Below, one piece after another: positions 5,885 through 58,709 of a DNA stretch of 64,000 nt (its first letter is position 1; each line of letters opens with the position of its first letter). Source of the stretch: Williamsoniiplasma somnilux (GTDB lineage: Bacteria; Bacillota_I; Bacilli_A; Mycoplasmatales; Mycoplasmataceae); assembly GCF_002804005.1 (NCBI RefSeq), contig NZ_CP024965.1, positions 558,001 through 622,000 of the forward strand. Direction: 5' to 3'. Made by a program: the position numbers and the translations under genes. Below the pieces are notes generated by a model. The model was not told where the DNA came from, made no database searches, and saw only the letters and a program-made list of their open reading frames with translations.

Positions 5885-6598
5885 TTATTCTATTATTGTC
5901 GAATTTAACTTTCCATTCATTACTTTAACAATATTGTTTTCGCCTTGCATATCAAAAACTTCAATTTTCATTTTGCCATCTCTTGCTAAAGTAACAGCGG
6001 TTTGATCCATCACCTGTAAATTCTTTTTAGTCATTTCTAAATATGATATATGTTCAATCATTTTTGCATGAGGATTTATTTTTGGGTCCGAATCATAAAC
6101 TCCTGCAACACCATTTTTAGCCATTAACAAGACATCTGCGCCAATTTCTATAGCTCTAATAGTAGCTCCAGTGTCTGTTGTGAAATGAGCATATCCAGTT
6201 CCACCTGTAAAAATTAAAATATAACCTTCATCTAATTTGTTTCTTGCTTCTTTAAAACTATAAGATTTTGTTACAGTACGAATTTCTAAAGCTGAATAAA
6301 CAATTACTTTTTTATAATCTAATCTTTGAAGAGTTGCTTCTAAAGCTAAACCATTCATAACGGTTGCCATCATACCCATATAATCAGCATTAATCTGAGG
6401 TAATTCTAATGTGGAGGCCAACTTACCTCTTCAAATATTTCCGCCCCCAACAACAATTCCTAATCGTGCACCTTGAGTTGACAACTCAATAATTTGTTTT
6501 GCAACATTTTCTAATAAATCTTTTGAATAGATATCTTCTTCAGACCTCAAAGCTTCACCACTCAATTTTAATAATGCAGTTTTGTATTTTAAACCCAT
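5885..6598 (-). CDS. pyrH: UMP kinase
   Basis: A 237-aa amino-acid-kinase family protein that phosphorylates UMP to UDP. Seen: N-terminal LKLSGEAL, glycine loop VVGGGNIWRG, ADYMGMMATVMN (UMP site), and FTGGTGYAHFTTDTGA, where most UMP kinases have TGGTGNPFFTTDTAA. A strong AAAGGAG site precedes the ATG. It heads a pyrH-frr unit, but the rpsB-tsf genes that usually precede pyrH lie 13 kb away. Confidence 0.97.
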
Positions 6599-7266
6599 AA
6601 AACTCCTTTAATACTTATTCAAATTATAACTTAAAACATAATTATTATATAAATTTAGAAAGTAAACAAAAGTTTGGGGGCATAAAAAATTGGAAATGTC
6701 CAAATTTTTTATTTGTTAATTAACTTAGATATAAGTGTAGTCTATTTTTGTATACATGCAAAATACTCTTGATAATCTAATTTAATATTTCTGTTAAATT
6801 GAGTTTTTGCTATATATCTATATCTTATATATTTATATTAATTTTTAATTTATGTTACTTAAAATATTATGTTTAAAAAATAATTTTTTAAACATTTACA
6901 AAATCTGGCATTTCTAATAATTTTATTTGACTTATAAAAAATGAGAATGAGAATGATTAATAAATGCTTAACAAAATAACGCATCTTTTAAAAAAATAAA
7001 TCTGGTATTATTATTGGTATTTTTAAAAAAATAAAAATTATTAAAAAATTTAAAAATCTTTTTTTATTGAATAAAAAATGAATAAAATGTCTTGCAAAAT
7101 TTTAAACTAATTTGTAGTTCAAAATTTTGCAAGACATTCATTTAAAAGTGTTACACTTTCAGTTTTTAATTTGTGAAGTTTTAATTTGTATTTTTAAGTA
7201 TATATTTTTACTGGTTCTTATTTTTCTTAAATTATTTTCTATTACTAAAAAAAGAACATTTTCATT
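6599..7266. other. 668-nt AT-rich non-coding stretch at the edge of the ABC island
   Basis: No ORF with a start and ribosome binding site was found on either strand. It contains the pyrH ribosome binding site, a bulged hairpin with A and T runs at 6684-6710 that could act as a terminator, a long perfect hairpin at 7086-7138, and a small hairpin AAAGTG-TTA-CACTTT near 7145. The rest is low-complexity A/T sequence. Confidence 0.7.
7086..7138 (-). repeat. long inverted repeat (18-bp perfect stem, extended by 5 bp)
   Basis: AATGTCTTGCAAAATTTT at 7086-7103 pairs exactly with its complement at 7121-7138. After one mismatch, five more pairs follow (105-109 with 115-119), leaving a 5-nt loop. It lies about 130 nt downstream of the stop at 7267. 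It may terminate the island transcript, encode a structured RNA, or be the remnant of a small mobile element. Confidence 0.7.
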
Positions 7267-8184
7267 TTAATCTTCTTTTAATTCAATTTTTTTTGGTAAT
7301 TTTTTAGAAACTTTCTTTTTTCTTACTATAGGCTTTTTTTTGTTTATTTTAACTTCATTTGCTTTATCAACATTTTTAGCTGGCTTTTTTTTGTTTATTT
7401 CAGCTTTATTTACGTTATCAACATTTTTAGCTGGCTTTTTTTTGTTGAATTGGACATCATCATTATTTTTTATAATTTCGCTTGTTTCTTTTGCGGAAAG
7501 ATCTTGAAAATTAAGCTTTTGATATTCAACTTTTTTTAATTTATCACCTATTTTTTTCATAAAAAGAATTAATTCTTTTTTAGTCATTTCATCTAAAACG
7601 ACATCTTCAACATCTATGTTGTTTAAAATAGCATAGTTTTTAATTTTATAAGCATTTTTAACTAATTCACTTAAATTTTCTTTGATTAAAATTGAACCAT
7701 CTGATTTTGCTCTTTGTTGCAAGAAAGTCAACTCGTTATCACTTTCATCATTAATTTCTTCAAAAAATGTTTTGTCTTCTTCTTGATAAGGATAAATATC
7801 AGCATCAGGATTTTCAATTTCTAAAACATCAGGATTAATATTTGTATTTTCGGATGCTTGTGCTTGTTTTAATGTTATTTTTTGTTTGAACTTAATAACT
7901 AGAACAATTCAAGTAAGTACTAAAATAGGCAAAACAATTAACAAAATAATATTGGCTATGTAATCAATTATGTTGGACAAATTCAAGTTTGTTGGAGGAG
8001 TTATTCCAATAGTTTTAAATGCTTCTAAAATACTTCATTTATTTACGATTGCATTTACAATTTTTATTAAAAAGAATGCAACTATTATTGCTACTACAGC
8101 ACATATTAAACCAATTTTTACTTTATTAATTTTTGCTTTTTTTAACACTTCTTTTTTGTTGTTTGTTTTTTGTTGTTTTTCCAT
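7267..8184 (-). CDS. two-TM protein with a mini-domain shared with L20 and lysine repeats, 305 aa
   Basis: Two membrane segments (about residues 24-48 and 75-103) form a hairpin with a short outside loop. Residues 110-150 are acidic. Residues about 160-218 match the end of the extended L20 in this window; both carry MTKKELI then xxMKxIxDxLKK. The tail has three copies of a 17-residue Lys repeat containing KKKPAKNVD. The start is ATG behind AAAGGATACTA. It is the last gene of the ABC/lipoprotein block, after a 78-aa gene and a hairpin. No function is known; a membrane-tethered partner of ribosomes or nucleic acid is inferred only. Confidence 0.75.
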
Positions 8185-8205
8185 TAGTATCCTTTCTTAA
8201 TATAA

Positions 8206-8234
8206 AAACCCTTCTTTACATAAAAGAAAGGTTT
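8206..8234 (-). terminator. intrinsic terminator after the 78-aa gene
   Basis: A 12-bp stem with one mismatch (AAACCCTTCTTT / AAAGAAAGGTTT) and a 5-nt loop. On the minus strand TTTTTAT follows. It separates the 78-aa gene from the 305-aa gene. Confidence 0.75.
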
Positions 8235-8260
8235 AAGTTCAAGTTATTTTTAACTTTTTA

Positions 8261-8497
8261 TTATAAATTTATTCGATTTATAATATCTTCTAAATCATTA
8301 ATTAATTTGTTTAATTGTGAGTTGATCATTTCTGCATCTGATATAGAAACTCTAAATTCACCTAATTTAAATAAATTTTTATTATTACTAATTTCAAGCA
8401 TTAAATTTTTGTTTAATTGCTTTTTAAATTTAATTAAATCTTCTAAATTAGATTCTACATCATGACCACTAAAAAATTTTTTAATTTGTTCTGTCAT
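8261..8497 (-). CDS. small helical protein, 78 aa, hypothetical
   Basis: Sequence runs from MTEQIKKFFS to IINRINL. It has no signal or membrane segment, and heptad-like Leu/Ile spacing in both halves suggests a helical hairpin or dimeric coiled coil. It begins 20 nt after the 528-aa lipoprotein with an AAAGGT-type site, so it is probably cotranscribed with the ABC/lipoprotein genes. No family recognised; a small cytoplasmic partner of the ABC assembly is a guess from position. Confidence 0.6.
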   Translation of the reverse strand: MTEQIKKFFSGHDVESNLEDLIKFKKQLNKNLMLEISNNKNLFKLGEFRVSISDAEMINSQLNKLINDLEDIINRINL

Positions 8498-8516
8498 AAT
8501 TTTTTACCTTTCTATT

Positions 8517-10103
8517 TTAATCAACTACAGTAATTTGTTGAAGTAAAACATTCAATGTTCTATTTGCAGCTGTATATAAGTCGTCGTTGCCTTTTGTTAA
8601 AAACACTACATAATAACTTGTGTTTTGCGTATTTTTAATTGTTGATCTAGTCATTGCCTGACTTGAATCAACAAAACCACTTAATGATTTTGTTTGCCCT
8701 AAAACGCTTTCAAGATTTTCATTTAAGTTATCTTGATTTTTATCGAAGAATAAAACTTCATCAACTTTAAATAAACTTTCGCTTGTAGTAGAACCATAGT
8801 TAAATGAAGTTGAGTTTCTAAAATACTCACTATTTATAAATTTATTTATTTTCTCGTCTTTATCATCGCCTGTAAAAATAGCTAAGCTTTCTACAAATGC
8901 TTTTTGTTGCTCTTTTATAGTTTCTACATTTCAATCTTGAGTAATTTTTTTATTAGATAAATAATTTTTTTGAACTTTTGAAGTATTATTATTTGCACTG
9001 AATTGAATAAATTGTGGTTCAATGTGTTTATTATTGTTGTTTTCAGTTAAAACATACCATTGTAAAGCTTTAGATTGAATTTTTAAAATTTCAACACTCG
9101 TTTTAATTTCATTAAGTTTTTGTTCAATTATTTCTTGTGAAAATTCATATCCACTCTCTGCTTTTAAAATAACACTTACTTCATTTGTTCAATAAATAGA
9201 GTTCATATTTGCTGTTGAATCACTAATTTGTAAATTAGAAATGGTATCAATTAAAATTGCTTTATTTCCTAAGACGTTTTGTTGTTGAGTCAAAAGTTGA
9301 TTTTTAAAATCATTAAAATCATTAAAATTTCTGTCTTTTATTCATTTGTTTATTGCTTCTTTACTTTCCGTTAGAACATCGTTTTCAATAATAATAGGAT
9401 CAACAATTGTTCCAGTGCATGAGAATGTTTTATCTTCATCAGTAACATCTGAATTAAATTCATAATAGTCAGAGTCATTATTTTTAATGCCAATCATTCC
9501 TGTTATTTTAAAGTATGTAAATTGTGGTTCCAATGCTTTATTCGCTTTTAATATTTCAACTTTAATTTTGTTAAAAGCAACCCCTTCTGCAGGTGTGCCT
9601 GGAATTTTAGCATTTGCAACAAATGTATTTCTAACAACACTTTCACTTTTGTAATAAATTGTATCTAAAAAGTTTTGCAAACCTGCAACAGTAGTTTCTA
9701 ATTCTTGTTTAGTAATTTTTTTCTTTGGAGCAGGTTTATTTCCGCCAAAATTATAAATTAATGTAATACTGCCAGAATATTTATAGTTATTTTTAGAATT
9801 ACCATTACCGATAAGCTCAATACTTTGTTGTTTGTTAGTTGTTACACCTTCTTCAATTACATCACTAGCATTAACGGTTATTCCACCCGTAACATCAATT
9901 TTTTGATTAACAAGTTCTATTTCTAATGCTTCGTTAGTTCAAGGGTTTTGATCATCTTTTTTACTATGTATAATGGCATTTAAAAATCTTTCAACTGATT
10001 CAATGTTTTGTTTTTCAACTACTTTATCACCACATGAGATAACAACGGTTGATGCTGAACTTGTAACAATTAAACTTGACAACACTAATAGCAATTTTTT
10101 CAT
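8517..10103 (-). CDS. surface lipoprotein of the ABC island, 528 aa
   Basis: An N-terminal lipoprotein signal (MKKLLLVLSS, lipobox VISC with Cys24) predicts lipid anchoring outside the membrane. The remaining ~500 residues are Asn/Lys/Ser-rich with no recognised domain. The ATG comes 4 nt after the stop of the 659-aa lipoprotein, and an AGGA site lies inside the end of that gene, so the two are tightly coupled. It may be a distant relative of the two other lipoproteins here, but I see clear shared blocks only between those two. No function is assigned. Confidence 0.85.
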
Positions 10104-10107
10104 TTAA

Positions 10108-12087
10108 TTAAATTTTTCCTATTAATGTATATGTACCACTAGAAACTCAAGAAAATTGATCTCTTACAAAGTTGATTTTTAATAAGTTAGTAGTAATACC
10201 AAAACCTAGATTGTGATTACCACCATTAGCTCGGAAAGTAAGTCCTTTTGATAATTTATCTCCACCAGGACCAGTATAATCATCTGAAACAATTGCCGCC
10301 TGAACAGTTTTAGTTTTATTTTGTATTATTCTAAAAGTATCAATTCCTTTCATTTTAGAAATTAAATGTTCTTCTTTAATTTGACGTGCTTCAACTGTAC
10401 TTTCTAAACTATAAGCATTACTATATTCTTGATTTGTCTTTGAATTAAATGGATTATCATTTTCTTCTAAATTTGTTCAATAATCTCAAATATTAAAATC
10501 TTTGCCATCTTGAGTTTTAACACCAGTTGCTCCGCTCATTAAAAATTTCATTCGGCTTTGTCCGCTGGATGCTGATTCGTTTAATCAAACATCGCTTTCT
10601 TTAATTCCATAAAATTCATGAAAAGCTTTTAACATTTCTTCAATTCCATTATAATAAGCAGCAAAAATTGATGAATTTTCTGCATCAGTTGTTTCTGCTG
10701 TAGCAGTTTTGTCATTATCCATTGAAATTGAATAAGTAAATGATATATCACTTAGTCTTTGACTATAACCATTAGCTAATGAAAATTGTAAGCCTTTAAT
10801 TTGTAATTGTTCATTTGTAACTGATAACTTCAATAAGTTAGGTACTTTTTCATTTTGTTCAATTTCTATGCCATTTGTCTTTTCAAGGTAGTCAGTTTCA
10901 AAACTTTTTCCATATTCATCTACAGTTTTTGTTCAAGAATTTAATAAATCGTCATACAATTTTTTATCTCCACTTTTTCTTTGACCCTCTAATGTTATTT
11001 GAGAATCGGCTTTAATTTTTCCGAAATAAGTATTCCATGCTGTTCAATCAGTAGCTGCATCAAATGTAGGAATCTGAATCATACCCATTTTATTTATATT
11101 ATTATTATCTCTAATCATTTCAGAATCATAATAACTTACAGTAACAGCATTTAATAATGCAGATTCAGTATTTGTGAAATACTTAGTTTTAATTGTTTTT
11201 GTTAAATCCTGAGCAAAAGCTTGATTAAATCCTTCCACTGCTTTTTTATATGTATTAGTTGATGCCGATAATAAGTCCTGAGTTGTTAAATTAGTGTCAT
11301 ATGTTTTAAGATCATTATAATCTACTCATAATTTTTCATTTCCTTCTTTTAACATTTCACCAGCTAGCTTTGTTTGCACTGAGTCAATTGCAACTACTAT
11401 ATCTTTATCATCAGATATAGTTACTACTATGTCACCAGTTAATGTTTTACTGATTGTTTGGTTTTCAGCATCTAAATATTTGTATTTAGAAGAATAACCT
11501 AATCTAATGTTAGAAACAAAACTTTCACCTTCTAGTGCTGAATATTGCAATTCAGAATTTGCATAATTAAATGTTAAATCATCAATTCATTTTGAACCGA
11601 ATGTACCAATTATCACTTGGTAAGTTGAAGCAGAGATTGAATTTTTTAAATTAGCCATTGCTTTTGTTGGACTTAGTAATGATTCAACATTACCTTTCAA
11701 GGCCTTTTGTTGATCTTCGGTTAAAATATCATAAAATGGAACTGGTGGAAACTCTCCATCACTGCGTGTTGTAACCTCGGGTGTAGTTCCATTACTAGCA
11801 TTTTTATAAATTTCACTTAAATTATCTTTTTGAAAAAAAGTAAACCCATTAGTTGCAGCTTCTGTATCTAATAAGGTACTTCTTGACACCATTGGTGTTT
11901 GAACAATGCTGGTAAATTTAGATTTTACTTCACTTTCAAGTTTTTTAATTAATTCTCTAATTTCATCTTTTCCTTGATCTGGATTTGTTGGATTCTCATC
12001 ACCACCCTTATCACCACATGAAATTACTGTTGCTCCGGCTGTTGCTGTTAATCCAACAACACCTAATATTGATAATAATTTTTTCAT
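10108..12087 (-). CDS. surface lipoprotein of the ABC island, 659 aa
   Basis: The start MKKLLSILGV was preferred over an upstream in-frame start because AGAAGGAAG lies 5 nt before it. The lipobox is VISC (Cys about 23), followed by a GDKGGDENP linker. The body shares blocks with the 622-aa lipoprotein: FF-x-x-x-NL-x-EI, GDIVVTISDDKDIV (EDIVITISNQNDII there), a Trp-x-x-x-DL motif, and EGFNQAFA (EGFYQAYA there). The two are thus paralogues within one locus. It lies between the ABC permease and the third lipoprotein on one strand. Likely role: extracytoplasmic partner of the permease. Confidence 0.87.
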
Positions 12088-12118
12088 ATTTCTTCCTTCT
12101 ATAAATTTTGATTTTATT

Positions 12119-13834
12119 TTAAAAATCAAATTTTCTAAATTTGTATAAAGCTATTAAAAAGCTTATTAAACTTATGCTAAATAAAATTGCCAAATAATAT
12201 CATGGCTTGACATAATTTGCTGTTGTATCTTTTTCAATCATATTAGTAGAAGATATTTTTAAATCATATTCAGGATATCCTAAAAAAAGATTTTTTTGAT
12301 CTTCTAAATAAATTTTAGAATCTGAACTTGGACTAAACCATATATCATCATAATAAAATCCTAAGTTACCAGTATAAACCATTCACAACCCACTATATAA
12401 GTTAAAATAGGATAAGAATCGCATATTTTTACGACCTTTAGTGTAACTATTTCAATCAGCTGATGATTTTGCCACTGGTGTTGAAGACATAATTATATAA
12501 TTGCTTGAATATTTAATAAAATACTGTTCAATAATTCTTGCTGTGTACATTAAATTAAAATTTAATTGATCTTTTACTAAATTATTTGCGTTTGAAAATC
12601 TAAAACCATCAGAGTTTTGCCCCAAGATTGCATATTCATAAAAAGATTTAACATCTTGTTTTTTTAATGCATATTTTATTCATTGCTGCTCTATTTCTTG
12701 AGCAGAAGGATTCAGTTTTTCTAGATAACTAATATCAATTCCTGAATCTAAAAATAAAAAATCGTAAAATAAATCGTATTTTTCATATTGCAAATTATTT
12801 TTAAAATAAATTTTTATATCATTACTAAAGTTTCTAAAATCTTTTAATATTTTTAAAATCTTTTGGTTAGTTGTTTTAGCGATTAAAGTGTCTAAAGCTG
12901 ACTCAGATATAAAGGTATTATTAAGTGTTAGTTGAATATTAAACTCGTCACCTTTTTGTCATGATTCAGGCACAGTTTTATCTCTTAAAGGCTTAGAAAA
13001 TAACTTTAAATTTGTTTCTGTAAATACCACAGGAGCAGTATTAATTAAGCCTAAATCACTTCACATCTTTGTTCTTAAGTTAATATTCTTACTTGATGAA
13101 AAGTCGTCTTGAGTCATTTTATTAGTAATAAAATAATCATAAACATATTTTGATAGATCAGGATACTTAAGATTGCCTTTACTAATATTATTATTTAATG
13201 TGTATGCATCATAAATATCATTTAATTTAAATATTTGTCCATTTTCAAATTGAATATTATAACTTTTTTCATTTGCCTTAATAAAAGACATAGGAATATT
13301 TGCTATAAATGACAAAGCAAGCAATAATGTACAAATAATAGTTGTAGTTTGCAGTGTAAACATAAATATTAAAAATGTAATAAAGTTAATCAAAAAGAAT
13401 GTCGCAAGCAAACAATATAATACATACATTGATGTCATTCTTAAAATAAAAATATCATATTTAAATAATGTAAATGTAGCATAAAATAAATTAATAATAA
13501 GAAAGCTTATTAAAATATTTGTCACACATATTATAATGATTAGTAAATATTGTGCTATAAAAAATTTTGTTCTACTTACTTGATTGGTTAAAACAATATA
13601 AGTTGTTTTATCTTCAAAGTTTTTATTAAAGAAAAACTGGATCATTCTTAAAATGAACACAAACATTAAACAGCACACAAAAAATAAAATATAAAAGTTA
13701 AATATAACAACTTGTGTACTTCCTGATTTTGCAAATGCTAATATAATTCCGACAATAATTGAAACAACAATAGTTGATAAATTCAAGATATAAAACAACC
13801 GCTCTTTCAACAAACTTTTAAAACTAAATTTCAT
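12119..13834 (-). CDS. ABC permease with large external domain, 571 aa or longer
   Basis: Five hydrophobic segments lie in the first ~185 residues, then about 340 mostly polar residues, then one last segment (YYLAILFSISLISFLIALY) and a short basic tail. The layout resembles an ABC-2-type permease with a big extracytoplasmic domain before the final TM. The first in-frame ATG is at 13834, but no ribosome binding site precedes it. A textbook AGGAGGTG at 13941-13948 sits 8 nt before an in-frame ACG at 13931-13933, so the protein may begin 33 residues earlier. It is downstream of the ATPase and one lipoprotein. Confidence 0.82.
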
Positions 13835-13930
13835 TAACTTGATAAAGGGGATTCTTTTGTATTTAATAAGTTTGTCTTTTATAAAGTTTTGTAAAGAGTT
13901 TGGTTTCTTTTTTTCATAATTTTCTTCTAC

Positions 13931-13948
13931 CGTATTAAATCACCTCCT
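13931..13948 (-). promoter_or_regulatory. strong ribosome binding site facing an ACG codon
   Basis: The complement reads AAAGGAGGTGATTTAATACG. The Shine-Dalgarno core AGGAGGTG is followed 8 nt later by ACG, which is in frame with the permease. The intervening 33 codons are open and give a sensible charged N-terminus (VEENYEKKKPNS). This suggests either non-AUG initiation or a recent ATG-to-ACG change. Confidence 0.55.
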
Positions 13949-13968
13949 TTCAATGGAAATTGTGTTAA

Positions 13969-15837
13969 TTAAATTGATTCAATTAAAGTTCTTTCAAATC
14001 AATAAAATTTATCTGATTTGATTACAAAACTTAGGTTTAAAAATGATAAATCAAAATCAATTGAAAGATTGCTGATACCCTCTTTAAATTTTTTAAAAAT
14101 AAGCTGGTTATTACTGATGTCAATTATTGGAATGTTTTCTAATACCGAGTAATTATTAAATTGAAAATGAAAAGATGATGTATTTGTTTTATTTAAGAAA
14201 GTTTGCCGCTCTGATTCTGTTGAAGAAGTCAAACTTTGATTAAGCAAACTTAACGCAGCATTGACATCAGAAATACTTCTACCATTAAGAGCGTTTTTTA
14301 TTTCTCAAATGTTAGAATTTGTAAAACTAACTAATGGTTGATTATCTGAAAAAGATGTTCATGATGTTTTAGTTATTGCATATGCTTGGTAAAAACCTTC
14401 CAAAGCATTTATTGTATTTTGATAAAGTGCTTTAAAAATAGGGTCTTGGCTAGCAAAAAGTGTTTTTGTTTGAACTACATTGTTTTGAGTTAAATAAGTG
14501 TCATTTAAATTATTAGCAGATATTGCTACATAATATGAAATTGGACTAATTGGATGATAATAATTAAAATCATCAAAGTACAAGCTAAAATTATTTAAAG
14601 TAATCTCTCCATAACTAACTATTGAATTAGAATTGATTGCAAATTTGTCTTTAATTTTAGTTTGAAAACTATTTACTCAATCTAGATATTCATTGCTTAG
14701 ATATGTATAAATGTCTTTATTTCCTTTAACTAATTTATTTTCTAAAACGATTTGATCATCAGATAATAGTTGACTAAAAATAGTTTTAAATAAATTAATA
14801 TTAGTTTTGTTAGTTGTTGAAAATGAATCATCAATCAATAGTGTTTTCGCACCATACTTGTTGTCGCGTACATTAAAGTTATTAATTTGATCAATAAATC
14901 TAAAATTTTTAAATCTATTTTCTTTTTTAAAAGCAAAATTATAACTTTGGCTTTTTTTAGTAGTATTTGAATTATGTTCAGAAATATAGTTTAAGAAATT
15001 TTGTTCAAATTTATCAAATTTAAAAAGTTCTTCAAAATCACTATTTTTTAAATTAAACAATTTTGCATAATCACTAATTCTAAGATCATAAGCATCAAAC
15101 CAAGCTCATTTAAACTTATCTTTAACAAGGTTATCTCTAAGCTGACTAGTTGCAAACTTTAAATTATTAATTATGTCATTTTGATTTGAAATTGTAATAA
15201 CAATGTCTTCTTGATATTTTTTGTTAATTACATTACTGTTTATGTCAGTGTACTGATATGAAAAAACTAAATCTAGATTAACATTTGCTATATAGTTTTT
15301 ATTTTCATTATCAAAACTTAAATAGCCAAAATCTATGTTACTAAAATCATAAGAAATTCCATTAAATCAAAATTCATCATTTTTCAAATCTAAAATGCTT
15401 GAATAAAAAAGCAATTCACTTGACATTGAATTTAAAATACTTTTTTCCAGTTGACTAGCTTTTGTAACTTTGTTTAAATCATTAATTAAAGTATCTTTTT
15501 CTCTTTGAGATAAAAGATCATAATTTGAATTAACACTTTCATTTTCTTTACGCTTTTTTATTTCTTCTAAATTTGCTTGAGTAAAAAATCCATAATTTTG
15601 ACTTTGTTCACTCGTTTCATCAATGTAAATAATTTCATTTTGTTTTTCCAATAATTCATTATGAAATTTTGCTTCTACTTCTTGTTCAAAAGATTGACTC
15701 AAAACATAATAGTTATAAATTGGTTTATACTCTTGTTTATATTCTGCAGGTTTTTGACCACAAGCAGTAGTTATTAAACCCGCTGCTAAACTAAAAGTAG
15801 AAAATATTGGTAAGATTTTTTTTAACATTTTACTCAT
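13969..15837 (-). CDS. surface lipoprotein of the ABC island, 622 aa
   Basis: A signal sequence with lipobox TTAC (Cys about 26, followed by GQKP) predicts a lipid-anchored external protein. It is Asn/Phe/Tyr-rich, with no catalytic motif seen. Blocks match the 659-aa lipoprotein two genes downstream (EDIVITISNQND, EGFYQAYA, a FFTQANLEEI block). Start MSKMLKK is 7 nt after the ATPase stop; the second Met (MLKK) is an alternative start. The permease ribosome binding site lies just after its stop. It sits directly between ATPase and permease, which supports a shared complex. Confidence 0.85.
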
Positions 15838-15843
15838 GGAATT

Positions 15844-18567
15844 TTATTTGTTAAATTTTTGTATTAACAATATTTCATTTAATTTGCTTTTTTCTTCTTG
15901 AATTTCACGTCTAATTCTTTCAAGCTCTAAAATATTTTCGCGTTGTTTCATTTCACTATCAAATTTCGCTAACTTTTGATTCATTTCTTTTTCAAAAGCC
16001 ATTTCTTTTCTTAATTGCTCAAAATATTCTTTCTCTTTATTTAAATCAGACTTAATTTTTTCTAATTCTTGATCTTTTAATGAAGCAATATTTTGTTGTC
16101 ACATTTGTTGTTGCATGTTATGTTCGACAAAACCATTATGCAAACCTTGTGAAGCACCATAATATTTTTTTATATTCTGTTGTTCACTCATTTCGAATTT
16201 AAGTTTCTCTATTTCCTCTTTTAATTTTATTATTTCTAAGTTAGATGGTTTAATACTTGATGAATCTTCGTTAGTTAAATTAACTTTTTTTGTAGCCATG
16301 CCGTTTTTGAAAGTGTTAATTTCACTAGCTTCAATTTGAATTTGTGACATAAATTCTTTTAGCTCAAACAAACTATTCTTAATTGTTTCTTTTTCTACAC
16401 TAGCTGTCTTATTAAATTCATCATGGTATTCTTTAAATTCTTTTATTTTTTCTAAATATTCAGTTTTAGATTCTTGAATAATTTTTGTTTCTTCACTGAT
16501 GTTTTCAATATAATTTTTTAAATCTAAAAGTTTATTGGTAAAATCAGCTTTAATAGAATCAATTTCTTTGTATTCAGCAATTGTTGCTACAGCGATTTCT
16601 TCTTGCAGCTTTTTTAATTCATTAATTTTTGCATTTAATTCAAATTTTTGATTTTCAACTTGTTCATTTTCTAAATCAACTTTAGTTAAAAATTCTTCAT
16701 TGCTTTGTTTTAAAGCACTTAAATCCTTATCTAAATTACTTCTTGAACTATTGATTTCATCGGATTCAATTTGTATTTGAGTTAGATAACTTTTGAATTC
16801 TTTAATTTCATCTTGAATGATTTCCCGTTGAACAGCAACCAAGTCTTTAAATTGATTTTCGAACTCTTTAAATTCATTCATTTTTGATTGCATTTCATTA
16901 GTTAATGAATTTTCTGATTTTTCAATATAGGTTTTTAAATCATCAAGTTTAGTTGAAAATTCAGCTTTTATTAAATCGAACTGTTCATATTCACTAGCTG
17001 AAGCTAGACTAATTTCATCTTGCAATGCTTTTAACTCGTCAATTTTAATTTGTAAATCAGTTTTTTTAAATTCTAAAGCTTCAGTTTCAGATTCAGTTTG
17101 TTGTAAAAGCACTTTTAAATTAGCCGTTTGATCTTCAAACGTTTTTTTAGCTTCGTGAATAATTTCAGATTCTAGTTTAACCTTTTCAAAATAATTTTGT
17201 AAATCATCAATATTTAAATTAATTTCAGTTTTTTGTTCAGCAACAATTTGATTTATTTCAGCTTTTAAATTTTTAAGTTCTTGCACTTTATCAAAAAAAT
17301 CTGTTTTAATTGTATTAATTTCAGATTCTGTTAAAACATCCTGACTTGTATTGCTTGTGTCACTTAAAACTAATGGATCAGAATTGGTTATTGATGTCTT
17401 AGCAGAATCATCACTTATTAACACTAAATTATTTGATAAAGCAACTTTTATATCATATTTGTTTAAGTTTAAAATATTTTTGTATTTATCTTCTATTTTG
17501 TTTAAGAAATTTAATGCCTTGTCTATACCAAGTGAAGCATCAGAACTATCAATTGCAAATTCTTCTAGAGGTTCGTATTTTGGCTTGTAAGGTGTTTCTT
17601 TATCTTCTAACGCTTTTTTGATTGAATCCATGTTGATAACTTGCGGTACTACATCCTTAGGTTGCATATGATTTTTTTCTAAAATATCTAAAGCATCATT
17701 AAAATTTTGTTGTTTATTCAAACCAATAACTAAAGAATTTAAACCTAGATCACAATTAAATGTCAAAATATTATGTTGATTCAAAAGTTTTTCAACCTCT
17801 GCTAGTACAACATCTTTTTCAAATGAAACATTTATTTTTTTGTATAAGTTTAATTCCTCTTCTGACCCAGAAAATAACAATTTTCCCTTTTCTAAAATTA
17901 CAAAATTTTCAATTATGTTGTAGACTTCATCAATGTTATGAACAGTCAATATAATTGTACTATTAAATTTTTCTTTAAATTCTTTTAATATTTTGTAAGA
18001 TTCTCCTCTTCATTTTGAATCTAAATTAGCACCAGGTTCATCTAAAATAAGAATTTCTGGTTCTTTAATGAAACACAATATTAAATTCATTCTGTTTTTC
18101 ATTCCTCACGAAAATGCATTTAAAGGTTTATCTTTAGATGTTCATAAGTCAAATTTTTTCAATCAATATTCAATTCTTGATTTAATTAATGTTTTATTTA
18201 AACCCATAACATTACACATGTTGTATAAAAAGTCATAAGCTGTAATTGAATACAGTGAAAAATCCATTTGAGAGTAAAAACCTACTTTAGAGTTATTTTC
18301 AATTGAATTACTTTTTTTACGTTCTTTACCATCAATATAGATATTTCCTTCATAATTTAGAGTAGCTCCAAGTAATGAGTTTAAAAATACACTCTTACCA
18401 GATCCACTGCTTCCTAATAAGGCTGTAATTTTTCCTTTTTCTATATTAAAAGAAAGAGGGCCTATATTTACATCTTTAAATTTTTTATGAAAATGGTCTA
18501 CTATCACAGCATTGTTATTATGCTTTTCAAGCATAATTTGCTTTGATTTGAAAGCATTTTTTTCCAC
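15844..18567 (-). CDS. ABC ATPase fused to a ~600-residue coiled coil, 907 aa
   Basis: Starts at GTG with AGGAG 8 nt upstream. Residues 20-240 form an ABC ATPase: Walker A GSSGSGKS (52-59), Q-loop near 100, Walker B ILILDEP (172-178), D-loop, and switch His210. The signature is degenerate: FSWGM replaces LSGGQ, and the Trp is UGA-coded. Residues 330 to the end are almost pure coiled coil with a ~139-residue tandem repeat, ending in a Gln-rich stretch and another helix. Ordinary ABC subunits are 220-350 aa. It is the first gene of the ABC/lipoprotein cluster. ATP hydrolysis likely drives the permease; the tail may be a cytoplasmic scaffold (inferred). Confidence 0.88.
16315..17046 (-). repeat. 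tandem protein repeat in the coiled-coil tail (period 139 aa, 417 nt)
   Basis: Residues 508-646 and 647-751 of the ABC fusion align end to end. Shared blocks are KIDELKALQDEI / KINELKKLQEEI, LIKAEFSTKLDDLKTYIE / SIKADFTNKLLDLKNYIE, and IQIESDEIN / IQIEASEIN. The start of the second copy lies exactly 417 nt from the first. A weaker half-unit precedes the first copy. Confidence 0.8.
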
Positions 18568-19413
18568 TTTGTTTTCTCCTATGTCATTTTTAAAATTTTT
18601 TCATTTGATTTTGAAGTTAATTTTCCAAAATCTTGAGTTGATTGTCACAAAAAAAAAAAAAAAACAAGGTTTTTTCTAAATTTGATTAAAAAACATTGAT
18701 TTTTTAATTAAAAATATATTAATAAAAAATCACAAACGTTACAAAATAAGTGTTAATAAAGTAGTTTATGATATGCTTTATCAAAAAAAGCAATCATCAT
18801 AAATAAAATAAATGTAGTTATAATAAAATATTTATTATTAAATGATGTTTTTCTATTAATAATTAAAAAAATTATTTAAAAATTTTTATATTCAATTTTC
18901 AAAAACCAATTATTATTTAAGTTAACCTTTTATGGTACTAAATTTAAACAAATAATTAAATCCTTATGTTTTTTGCAAATTAATAATGTTTATCTTGACA
19001 TTTCAACAATTATTTTTTGTTTTTTAAAATTATGTGTAAATGCATAACTAATATGATTGACAAAAGTTAATAAGTATTTATTTAAAATCAATTTCAATAT
19101 TTATGAAACCTATGACTTTATTTTTTCATTCAACGCAATGTGTTGTTTAATAAAAATTTATTCAGTTTTTTACTTCTTTTTACAAAAGTTATTCAATCTT
19201 CAATTGTTAAGTCCGATAAATATAAAAAACTAAAAGTGCAATTTAATACTTTATTTTTGTCTATAAAAAAGGTAATTAGTTTTAGCTATTTAATTAATAT
19301 TTTTATCTAAAAGATAAACTAATTTATTTTAAAAAGTGTTATCTATTTAAAGTCTTTATATTAGAAAATTACTTATTTAAAATGTATTGTTATATTGAAA
19401 AAAATTAAAAACC
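18568..19413. other. long AT-rich non-coding stretch upstream of the ABC fusion
   Basis: About 850 nt with no supported gene. It holds the ribosome binding site of the ABC fusion, the T16 tract at 18649-18664, and long A/T-rich sequence. A 55-codon open stretch on the minus strand (about 19129-19290) ends in a plausible-looking basic peptide but has no start codon or ribosome binding site. It might be a gene remnant. Confidence 0.65.
18649..18664 (-). promoter_or_regulatory. homopolymeric T16 tract upstream of the ABC island
   Basis: Sixteen consecutive T on the coding strand, 82 nt before the GTG start of the ABC fusion. TTGTTT at the tract's 5' end and GACAAT just after it could be -35 and -10 hexamers separated by 15 nt, mostly T. 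A length change of two would give the ideal 17. Such tracts drive phase variation of mycoplasma surface lipoproteins; application here is inference. Confidence 0.5.
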
Positions 19414-19438
19414 ATAAAAAAACAAGCCTAAGCTTGTT
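19414..19438 (-). terminator. intrinsic terminator after the tsf-linked membrane gene
   Basis: AACAAGC / GCTTGTT stem with a 4-nt loop, followed on the minus strand by seven T. It abuts the stop codon at 19439 and closes the rpsB-tsf transcript. Confidence 0.8.
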
Positions 19439-20086
19439 CTAAACTTCCATATTTTTGAAATATTCGTCTGCATTTCCTTTTGATAATTCTTTTCCAGATA
19501 AGGAAATATTTTTAATTATAAATTGTCCACTTACAGATGTTGTTTTGAATTTTTGTCTTTTTTTAGATCTTTTGCCTTGAGAATAGAAAATGTAAACTGC
19601 TGATTTGCTTTCATCTAAAATAACTTTGCTAATTTTGTCATAAGCAATTGATTCCCCTAAAAATTGAATTTGTGAGTCATCCATAACAATTCCAAATTTT
19701 GAAATAAAGAATCACATTAAAATAACCATTGATAATAAATCGACAAATCCAATAGCAGCTAAAGATATTATGACTTTAAATGCTGTATCAGGTCCTTTTG
19801 CACCAAAAATATTTAGTGCTTCACTATAAAAAACAACAATAAGAATTCAATCAATTAGTAATAATGTTGATAATATTGAAATTATTGAAATGAATGGTAT
19901 CCCAATGATTCTAGCTTTATATTCAGATTTTATAAATTTATAAAGATAATATGCAAACATTCCCGAAAGAATTCCTCAAACAATCGCTAAAATTACTCCA
20001 ACAAGCATTACTTGCACATTAGGTTCACCAAAATTAGTTCCTAATTGACCATTAGGTCCAAAACCTACAAAAAAATTTAAATTCAT
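19439..20086 (-). CDS. membrane protein downstream of tsf, 215 aa
   Basis: Three to four hydrophobic segments in residues 25-135 (VMLVGVILAIVWGIL, IPFISIISILSTLLLIDWILIVVF, VIISLAAIGFVDLLSMVILMWFF). A soluble C-terminal domain of about 80 residues follows, with basic KRSKKRQKFKTT. The ATG lies 2 nt after the tsf stop, so it is cotranscribed with rpsB-tsf. The family is not recognised; the C-terminal part looks like a small beta-rich PH-like domain, but that is weak. Confidence 0.75.
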
Positions 20087-57836: not shown

Positions 57837-58709
57837 TTATTTTTTTAAAAGATCACGAATATCTTTCATATATTTAATTAATTCTTTTTTAGTCATATCA
57901 CGCAAATTTGCTTCTGCAACTTTTTTGTTTTCTTTTGGTGCTAATGAACGTATTTTATTAGCGTGTTTTTGTAATTCTGAACGAGCTTCAGTAATTGAAT
58001 CTGATCCATCTAGTTTAGCTCTTTCTTCAGTTGACATTGCAGCAAGTTTAGCTGCTTTTTCTGCTTTTTTAGCTTCTTGAGCTGCTTTAATTGCAACTTT
58101 TTCAGCTTCATCTTTAGCTGCAGCTAATGCAGCTTCGTGTTTAGCTTTTTCAGCAGCTTCGTGTTTAGCTTCTTCTTCTAAGTTAGCTGCATATTTTGCT
58201 TCCATTGCTTTTAAAAAGTCGTGTGAATCAACTTCGTCTTTAATGATTTCTTTTGTTGTTTCTTTAATGTTTTTTTTAGGTGCTTCAGCTTTAACTTCAA
58301 CTTCTTTTTTAACTGGAGCAACAAGTGGTTTTGCTGTCGATTTAGTTATTGGAGAATTTAAAGCTTTTTGTACAGCATTAACAATTTTTTCAAATTCTGA
58401 TGGTTGAGAAATTGCTAATTCTGATAACATTTTTCTATTAATTTCAATTCCTGAAAGTTTTAATCCATTCATAAATTTTGAGTATGATAAACCAAATGGT
58501 CTAACAGCTGCATTAATACGAACGATTCATAATTGTCTAAAGTCACGTTTCTTTTGTTTACGCCCAACAAAGGCATATGCCATAGAACGTACTACTTGTT
58601 CATGCGCTTTTTTGTATGATGATTTTTTTAATCCATAGTAACCTTTAGCACGTTTGATTCAACGTTTTCTTCTTGCTCTAGTTACTTTTCCAAATTTTAC
58701 TCTTGCCAT
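57837..58709 (-). CDS. rplT: ribosomal protein L20 with a 170-residue extension
   Basis: Residues 1-~118 are a normal L20 ([67 protein letters not shown]). Residues 119-290 are extra: a linker, an Ala/Glu/Lys-rich helix ([20 protein letters not shown]), then a ~55-residue module ending with [19 protein letters not shown] that recurs in the membrane protein at 7267-8184. L20 is usually ~118 aa and organises 23S rRNA assembly. It is last in infC-rpmI-rplT. Confidence 0.95.

What the first reader, a model, noticed from the sequence alone, without database searches (positions are those of the whole stretch)
6599..19438. A lineage-specific ABC/lipoprotein/coiled-coil island splits the rpsB-tsf and pyrH-frr pairs
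In most Firmicutes and many Mollicutes, rpsB-tsf-pyrH-frr are adjacent. Here tsf (20089) and pyrH (6598) are 13 kb apart. The space holds a one-direction cluster: ABC ATPase with coiled-coil tail, lipoprotein, permease with large ectodomain, two more lipoproteins, a 78-aa protein and a lysine-repeat membrane protein. Long AT-rich non-coding stretches (668 and ~850 nt) lie at both ends. The architecture does not match standard import, export or LolCDE-type systems that I know. A trans-envelope machine coupling ATP hydrolysis to surface lipoproteins (adhesion, motility or release) is a reasonable hypothesis, but inference only.
Basis: partly seen in the sequence, partly recalled or inferred. Interest (0 to 1): 0.85.

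Follow-up and report, generated by a model that had tools for sequence, protein, structure and literature searches.

The report
Transferred ABC-lipoprotein operon beside pyrH
A wall-less bacterium carries, wedged between two gene pairs that are normally neighbours, a probably imported operon for an unusual ATP-driven membrane machine with its own surface lipoproteins, preceded by a 16-T stretch of a kind that recurs near promoters across this bacterial family.

Summary
In 17 of 17 relatives read in detail, rpsB-tsf-(membrane gene)-pyrH-frr are neighbours, with 18-164 bp (9), about 1.2 kb (6), 2.1 or 4.3 kb before pyrH, against 12.8 kb here. The 215-aa gene next to tsf belongs to the old neighbourhood, not the island. 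The seven-gene cassette is not unique to this genome: it recurs in the same order, at other sites, in five Mesoplasma-group species. Its divergence from those copies is 1.3-2.2 times that within the group (core genes 6-11 times), and permease and core trees conflict, so horizontal transfer is the best reading. The lipoprotein-permease-ATPase core is a larger family, up to 17 permease hits per Spiroplasma-type genome. The permease is ABC-2/type V (profile hit to PmtD, fold match to NosY) with a ~350-residue ectodomain that matches no solved structure; the lipoprotein LpA matches none either. An unreported feature, a T16 run ~81 nt before the ATPase start, belongs to a discrete class (A/T runs of 11-14 nt: none; 15-20 nt: 89 in 1.65 Mb), mostly promoter-proximal. 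Phase switching is possible but untested. The mechanism (export, or mechanical work on lipoproteins) is inference.

The parts
15844..18567 (-). ABC ATPase with Walker A, signature FSWGMK, Walker B, then a ~500-residue Glu/Lys-rich coiled-coil tail; likely start GTG 18567 after AGGAGAAAAC (ORF call reaches 18648)
   Evidence: ABC_tran E 4e-25; motifs; heptad power 3.52 vs shuffle mean 0.66, max 2.9 of 500; start by comparison with relatives
13969..15837 (-). LpA, lipoprotein (lipobox Cys 26), 622 aa; homologous to LpB and to the lipoproteins of Spiroplasma-type cassettes
   Evidence: hhalign 98.7-99.7%; AF2 pLDDT 80.6 with no PDB match
12119..14002 (-). ABC-2/type V permease: TM1-5, ~350-residue ectodomain, TM6; start codon unclear (strong ribosome-binding site followed in frame by ACG; next ATG at 13834)
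10108..12087 (-). LpB, lipoprotein with plasma-type signal peptide; likely start ATG 12087
   Evidence: NF038029 E 1e-9
8517..10103 (-). LpC, lipoprotein unrelated to LpA/LpB
8261..8497 (-). 78-aa helical protein, the most conserved cassette member (88-94% identity in Mesoplasma-group copies); found only in genomes with the full cassette
7267..8184 (-). Krep: two TM helices, a ~63-aa domain shared with tails of ribosomal and other proteins, Lys-rich repeats; a terminator-like hairpin (8234-8206) precedes it, so it may be a separate transcript
18649..18664 (-). T16 run (coding sense) in the context CTTG-T16-GTGACAAT, ~81 nt upstream of the ATPase start; candidate promoter spacer
7089..7135 (-). 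strong terminator-like hairpin downstream of the island
   Evidence: z -9.5
19419..19440 (-). terminator-like hairpin after the 215-aa gene, closing the tsf unit before the island
19439..20086 (-). 215-aa membrane-protein gene of the ancestral tsf neighbourhood; upstream edge of the island, not part of it

Best explanation
A self-contained surface operon was acquired horizontally from a Mesoplasma-like donor and inserted between the tsf and pyrH transcription units. It encodes an ABC-2/type V transporter-like complex (one ATPase gene and one permease gene, so probably a homodimer of each). ATP hydrolysis in the cytoplasm moves the membrane helices and with them a novel permease ectodomain that engages the co-encoded lipoproteins LpA and LpB. 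The work done is either export of a substrate handed to the lipoproteins or mechanical remodelling or release of surface lipoproteins. The coiled-coil tail, the 78-aa protein and the two-TM protein are accessories of this clade's version. Transcription probably starts at a promoter containing the T16 run. Shown: synteny, insertion, cassette conservation, ABC-2 relationship, unmatched ectodomain, discrete T16 class. Inferred: transfer direction, complex formation, kind of work, promoter activity, any switching.
For: Insertion. Cassette in five other species at other sites. Transfer: divergence ratios and conflicting trees, core G000 with its genus 99/96, permease G000 with g7 95/99. Lipoprotein directly upstream in 53 of 89 permease loci, ATPase within three genes in 72 of 89. 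ABC-2: PmtD profile hit E 3e-5 over positions 17-188, ABC2_membrane hits in 5 of 60 members, NosY fold match prob 1.00, TM-score 0.60 on the target. ATPase motifs complete. Own terminators. T16 element.
Against: Foldseek E-values are weak (0.13) and rest on the membrane part. LpB is only 48% identical to g7 copies. No experiment shows a complex, a substrate or expression. Donor and date of the transfer are not fixed; loss in other lineages is not excluded.
Confidence: 0.6

Rival explanations
1. An ordinary ABC-2 exporter of a peptide, lipid or drug (PmtCD-like); the lipoproteins are bystanders or cargo and the ectodomain only gates the exit.
For: Best sequence-profile hit in the PDB is PmtD; ATPase family best hit is DrrA-type.
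Against: The lipoprotein family is linked to the permease in distant genera, and an ectodomain of this size is absent from PmtD-like permeases (hit confined to positions 17-188).
Confidence: 0.35
2. Mechanical transmission as in NosDFYL: ATP hydrolysis drives conformational work on extracytoplasmic lipoproteins without transport.
For: Top fold matches are NosY chains; the co-encoded surface proteins and the permease ectodomain occur as a linked set.
Against: No NosD-type beta-helix is seen: LpA has another predicted fold, and the fold match covers only the membrane part.
Confidence: 0.3
3. Vertical descent: the cassette is ancestral to this family and was lost or replaced in the window's closest relatives, then relocated next to pyrH.
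For: Core cassettes are widespread in the family; G059 in the same genus has a shorter relative.
Against: Cassette divergence G000-g7 is only 1.3-2.2 times that within g7, while core genes show 6-11 times; tree conflict; cassette-less tsf-pyrH site in all relatives.
Confidence: 0.15
4. The T16 run is a fixed structural promoter spacer or DNA-bending element, not a phase-variable switch.
For: Lengths are tightly 16-17 across species; some T runs precede housekeeping-type genes; in M. agalactiae the T tract by the vpma promoter gave no negative phenotype in phase-locked mutants (PMC2268961).
Against: Runs this long are expected to slip; lengths of 15-20 occur; spacer-length switching is reported for vlp, maa2 and vmm (cited in PMC2268961).
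Confidence: 0.5
5. ABC importer with lipoprotein substrate-binding proteins.
For: Lipoproteins next to an ABC system are typical of importers.
Against: Permease is ABC-2-like; LpA shows no substrate-binding-protein family or fold match.
Confidence: 0.05

Closest known systems
NosDFYL ABC complex (NosY permease)
   Same: Membrane-domain fold (prob 1.00, TM-score 0.60 on NosY); ABC system working with extracytoplasmic proteins including a lipoprotein (from general knowledge)
   Different: Large permease ectodomain and coiled-coil ATPase tail here; no NosD-type beta-helix found (LpA only was folded); weak E-value
PmtCD (S. aureus phenol-soluble modulin exporter)
   Same: Profile similarity over TM1-5 (E 3e-5)
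   Different: PmtD lacks the ectodomain; no lipoproteins in the system as I recall it
LolCDE / MacB (type VII)
   Same: ABC ATPase plus a permease with a large outer domain acting on lipoproteins or partner proteins
   Different: No FtsX/MacB family hit; ectodomain lies between TM5 and TM6, not between TM1 and TM2
Slippage promoters of mycoplasma lipoprotein genes (vlp, maa2, vmm); vpma T tract
   Same: Repeat tract between or beside promoter elements upstream of surface lipoprotein genes (PMC2268961)
   Different: Length switching not shown here; tract length conserved at 16-17 between species

Membership tests
ABC-2 / type V ABC exporter | ATPase with Walker A, signature and Walker B | tested here: met
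   GSSGSGKS, FSWGMK, ILILDE; ABC_tran 89 bits
ABC-2 / type V ABC exporter | Permease membrane domain of ABC-2 family | tested here: met
   Window protein alone has no Pfam hit, but the family profile hits PmtD, 5 of 60 members hit ABC2_membrane, fold matches NosY, ABCG
ABC-2 / type V ABC exporter | Exports a substrate | not testable with these tools
   no experiment
NosDFYL | NosD-type beta-helix partner | tested here: not met
   LpA has a mixed helix/strand model and no such match; LpB and LpC were not folded
NosDFYL | NosY-like membrane fold | tested here: inconclusive
   prob 1.00 but E 0.13; shared with other type V permeases
LolCDE / MacB | FtsX/MacB permease family with ectodomain between TM1 and TM2 | tested here: not met
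   no such Pfam hit in 60 members; topology of the model
ABC importer | Substrate-binding lipoprotein of a known SBP family | tested here: not met
   no Pfam family for LpA/LpB/LpC above cut-off; no SBP fold for LpA
Slippage-switched promoter | Long homopolymer near promoter elements of surface genes | tested here: met
   T16 at 18649-18664; class enriched upstream of cassettes (27/88 vs 16/352)
Slippage-switched promoter | Tract length varies in a population and sets expression | not testable with these tools
   one genome per species held; no reads or RNA data

The most novel reading that the evidence does not exclude
A family of mobile, often amplified mechanochemical complexes of wall-less bacteria, in which an ABC-2 transporter with a new ectodomain does mechanical work on its own surface lipoproteins rather than transporting, switched by slippage of a T16-17 promoter spacer that forms a family-wide contingency system.
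Probability: 0.15. Interest if true: 0.8.

Novelty: new variant of a known kind. Interest (0 to 1): 0.58.

Why it matters
It turns an unexplained gap in a conserved gene order into a concrete transfer event of a whole surface machine, defines a lipoprotein/ABC-2 permease family with an unmatched ectodomain that some Spiroplasma-type genomes carry in up to 17 hits, and points to a discrete class of T16-17 promoter-linked tracts that makes phase variation in this family directly testable. A genome of exactly the size I recall for Mesoplasma florum L1 (G010, 793,224 bp) carries the T16 element, the ATPase and the start of LpA, so the work could be done in that non-pathogenic model species.

Tried and rejected
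Absence of the permease in G010 is not biological: that stretch is masked (N at 1-9001 of L170). Cassette on plasmids: no match (a standard-code tblastn can miss TGA-rich genes). Rfam families in the island: none at gathering threshold. Direct or inverted repeats shared by the two island ends: nothing above shuffles. Conserved flanking DNA: only the T16 element and low-complexity matches. tRNA at the site: none found in the window. A genome-contig scan found only Mesoplasma seiffertii. Literature: no paper found on this cassette or on T16 tracts in this family, but the library is open-access only. One search was a failed script.

Full report
What is there. The window lies in a single-contig 868,413-bp genome (G000:C1:558001-622000) that reads TGA as Trp. 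Between pyrH (5885-6598) and a 215-aa membrane-protein gene next to tsf (19439-20086) lie seven genes on one strand: ABC ATPase, LpA, permease, LpB, LpC, a 78-aa protein and a two-TM Lys-rich protein. The likely ATPase start is GTG 18567 after AGGAGAAAAC; LpB probably starts at ATG 12087.

Insertion. tsf and pyrH were located in 60 family genomes. In 44 of the 59 others they lie within about 5 kb; in 15 (all 14 genomes of g8, and G005) they are far apart by rearrangement. A homologue of the 215-aa protein is found in 59 of 60, beside tsf. Seventeen loci were fetched and read: rpsB-tsf-215aa-pyrH-frr in all, with 18-164 bp between the 215-aa gene and pyrH in nine, 1.1-1.2 kb in six, 2.1 and 4.3 kb in one each, and 12.8 kb only in G000. 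In G008 the 1.2 kb holds a polysaccharide-deacetylase-like gene and a small ORF. So the island sits in a slot that others have filled with other genes. Terminator-like hairpins lie after the 215-aa gene (19440-19419) and downstream of the island (7135-7089, z -9.5).

The cassette elsewhere. Permease homologues and 20-kb neighbourhoods show the same gene order in G007 (two copies), G008, G009 (two, in tandem), G011 and G013, at other sites; the 78-aa gene is intact in all but the second G009 copy. G010 shows the T16 element, the ATPase and the start of LpA before masked sequence. More distant genera have a core of lipoprotein, permease and ATPase, with 16-17 permease hits in G042 and G044. Of 89 permease genes, 53 have a lipoprotein directly upstream and 72 an ATPase within three genes. 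LpA, LpB and the Spiroplasma-type lipoproteins are one family by hhalign; LpC is not.

Transfer. Core proteins (tsf, pyrH, frr, rpsB) are 94-97% identical within the g7 group and 62-71% between G000 and g7. Cassette proteins vary more within g7 (69-93%) yet only somewhat more between G000 and g7: permease 76%, ATPase domain 87%, LpA 68%, LpC 64%, Krep 60%, LpB 48%; the 78-aa protein is 88-94%. The divergence ratio is 1.3-2.2 for the cassette and 6-11 for the core. Trees agree: four core proteins put G000 with its own genus (99/96), the permease puts it sister to all g7 copies (95/99). Transfer from a Mesoplasma-like donor is the simplest account; vertical descent with losses is not excluded.

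What the machine is. No Pfam model hits the window permease, but 5 of 60 homologues hit ABC-2 families, and the family profile matches S. aureus PmtD over positions 17-188 (E 3e-5). AlphaFold2 gives a confident model (pLDDT 91.3): five TM helices, a mixed domain of ~350 residues, a sixth TM helix. The TM part matches NosY (prob 1.00, TM-score 0.60 on the target, E 0.13), then ABCG proteins and PmtD; nothing solved matches the ectodomain. Outside the family, in a 395-genome sample of the class, only short, weak, mostly TM-part matches were found. LpA has no solved relative by profile or fold. The ATPase has complete motifs and a heptad-periodic tail that most other family ATPases lack.

The T16 element. 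Upstream of the ATPase lies CTTG-T16-GTGACAAT. A T16 run recurs in the g7 cassettes except one diverged G007 copy. Over 1.65 Mb from the fetched loci, A/T runs number 845 (8 nt), 63 (9), 6 (10), 0 (11-14), 7 (15), 43 (16), 32 (17), 5 (18), 1 (19), 1 (20): a discrete class. In the window it is the only run above 8 nt. Of 87 unique tracts, 49 lie within 200 nt upstream of a gene with T on the coding strand, 5 only in the other sense, 33 neither; random positions give 4.3%. Cassettes carry it more often than other genes (27/88 against 16/352, p 8e-11); other lipoprotein genes are intermediate (7/43). The sample was drawn around permease loci, so genome-wide rates may differ. G000 has eight runs of 13 or more in all, several before lipoprotein or membrane-anchored genes. 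Spacer-length switching is reported for vlp, maa2 and vmm in other mycoplasmas, while the vpma T tract was found not to switch (PMC2268961). M. florum promoters were reported with a TAWAAT -10 box and an extended element but no clear -35 box (PMC7745072). Promoter function is likely; switching is open.

Mechanism. One ATPase gene and one permease gene suggest a homodimer of each. The linkage of lipoprotein and permease across genera suggests that the ectodomain acts on the lipoproteins. Whether a substrate is exported or force is transmitted cannot be told from sequence; I put the two at about equal odds. What is new is the combination: ABC-2 core, unmatched ectodomain, dedicated lipoproteins, amplification and T16 promoter element; the parts are variants of known kinds.

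Noticed in passing
window 57837-58709 (ribosomal protein L20) and 7267-8184 (Krep); L240, L245, L246, L253, L257, L239, L241: A ~63-aa domain (ERAKxDGS...RSELQKHAN...[14 protein letters not shown], 12 invariant columns) ends ribosomal proteins L20, S6 and S16, a HU-like protein, PTS-like permeases and small membrane proteins, and lies inside Krep; 1-7 copies per genome in Mesoplasma/Entomoplasma-type genera, weak Rho_N similarity.
   Followed up: partly
window 18649-18664; L152-L158 and other T-tract loci: T15-18 runs form a discrete length class across the family and precede lipoprotein, PTS, ABC and some housekeeping-type genes.
   Followed up: partly
window 13900-14010: The permease has a strong ribosome-binding site (AAGGAGGTG) followed in frame by ACG instead of ATG/GTG/TTG at normal spacing: a non-standard start or a sequence error.
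   Followed up: no
L230:2903-6754 (G054) and L223:3122-4185 (G008): The slot between the 215-aa gene and pyrH holds unrelated inserts in other genomes: a 1283-aa ORF in G054, a polysaccharide-deacetylase-like gene plus a small ORF in G008.
   Followed up: partly
G007:C1:404040-404352, G008:C1:543541-543684, G009:C1:582931-583050: Permease and 78-aa gene fragments (broken copies) near or apart from intact cassettes suggest repeated duplication and decay.
   Followed up: no
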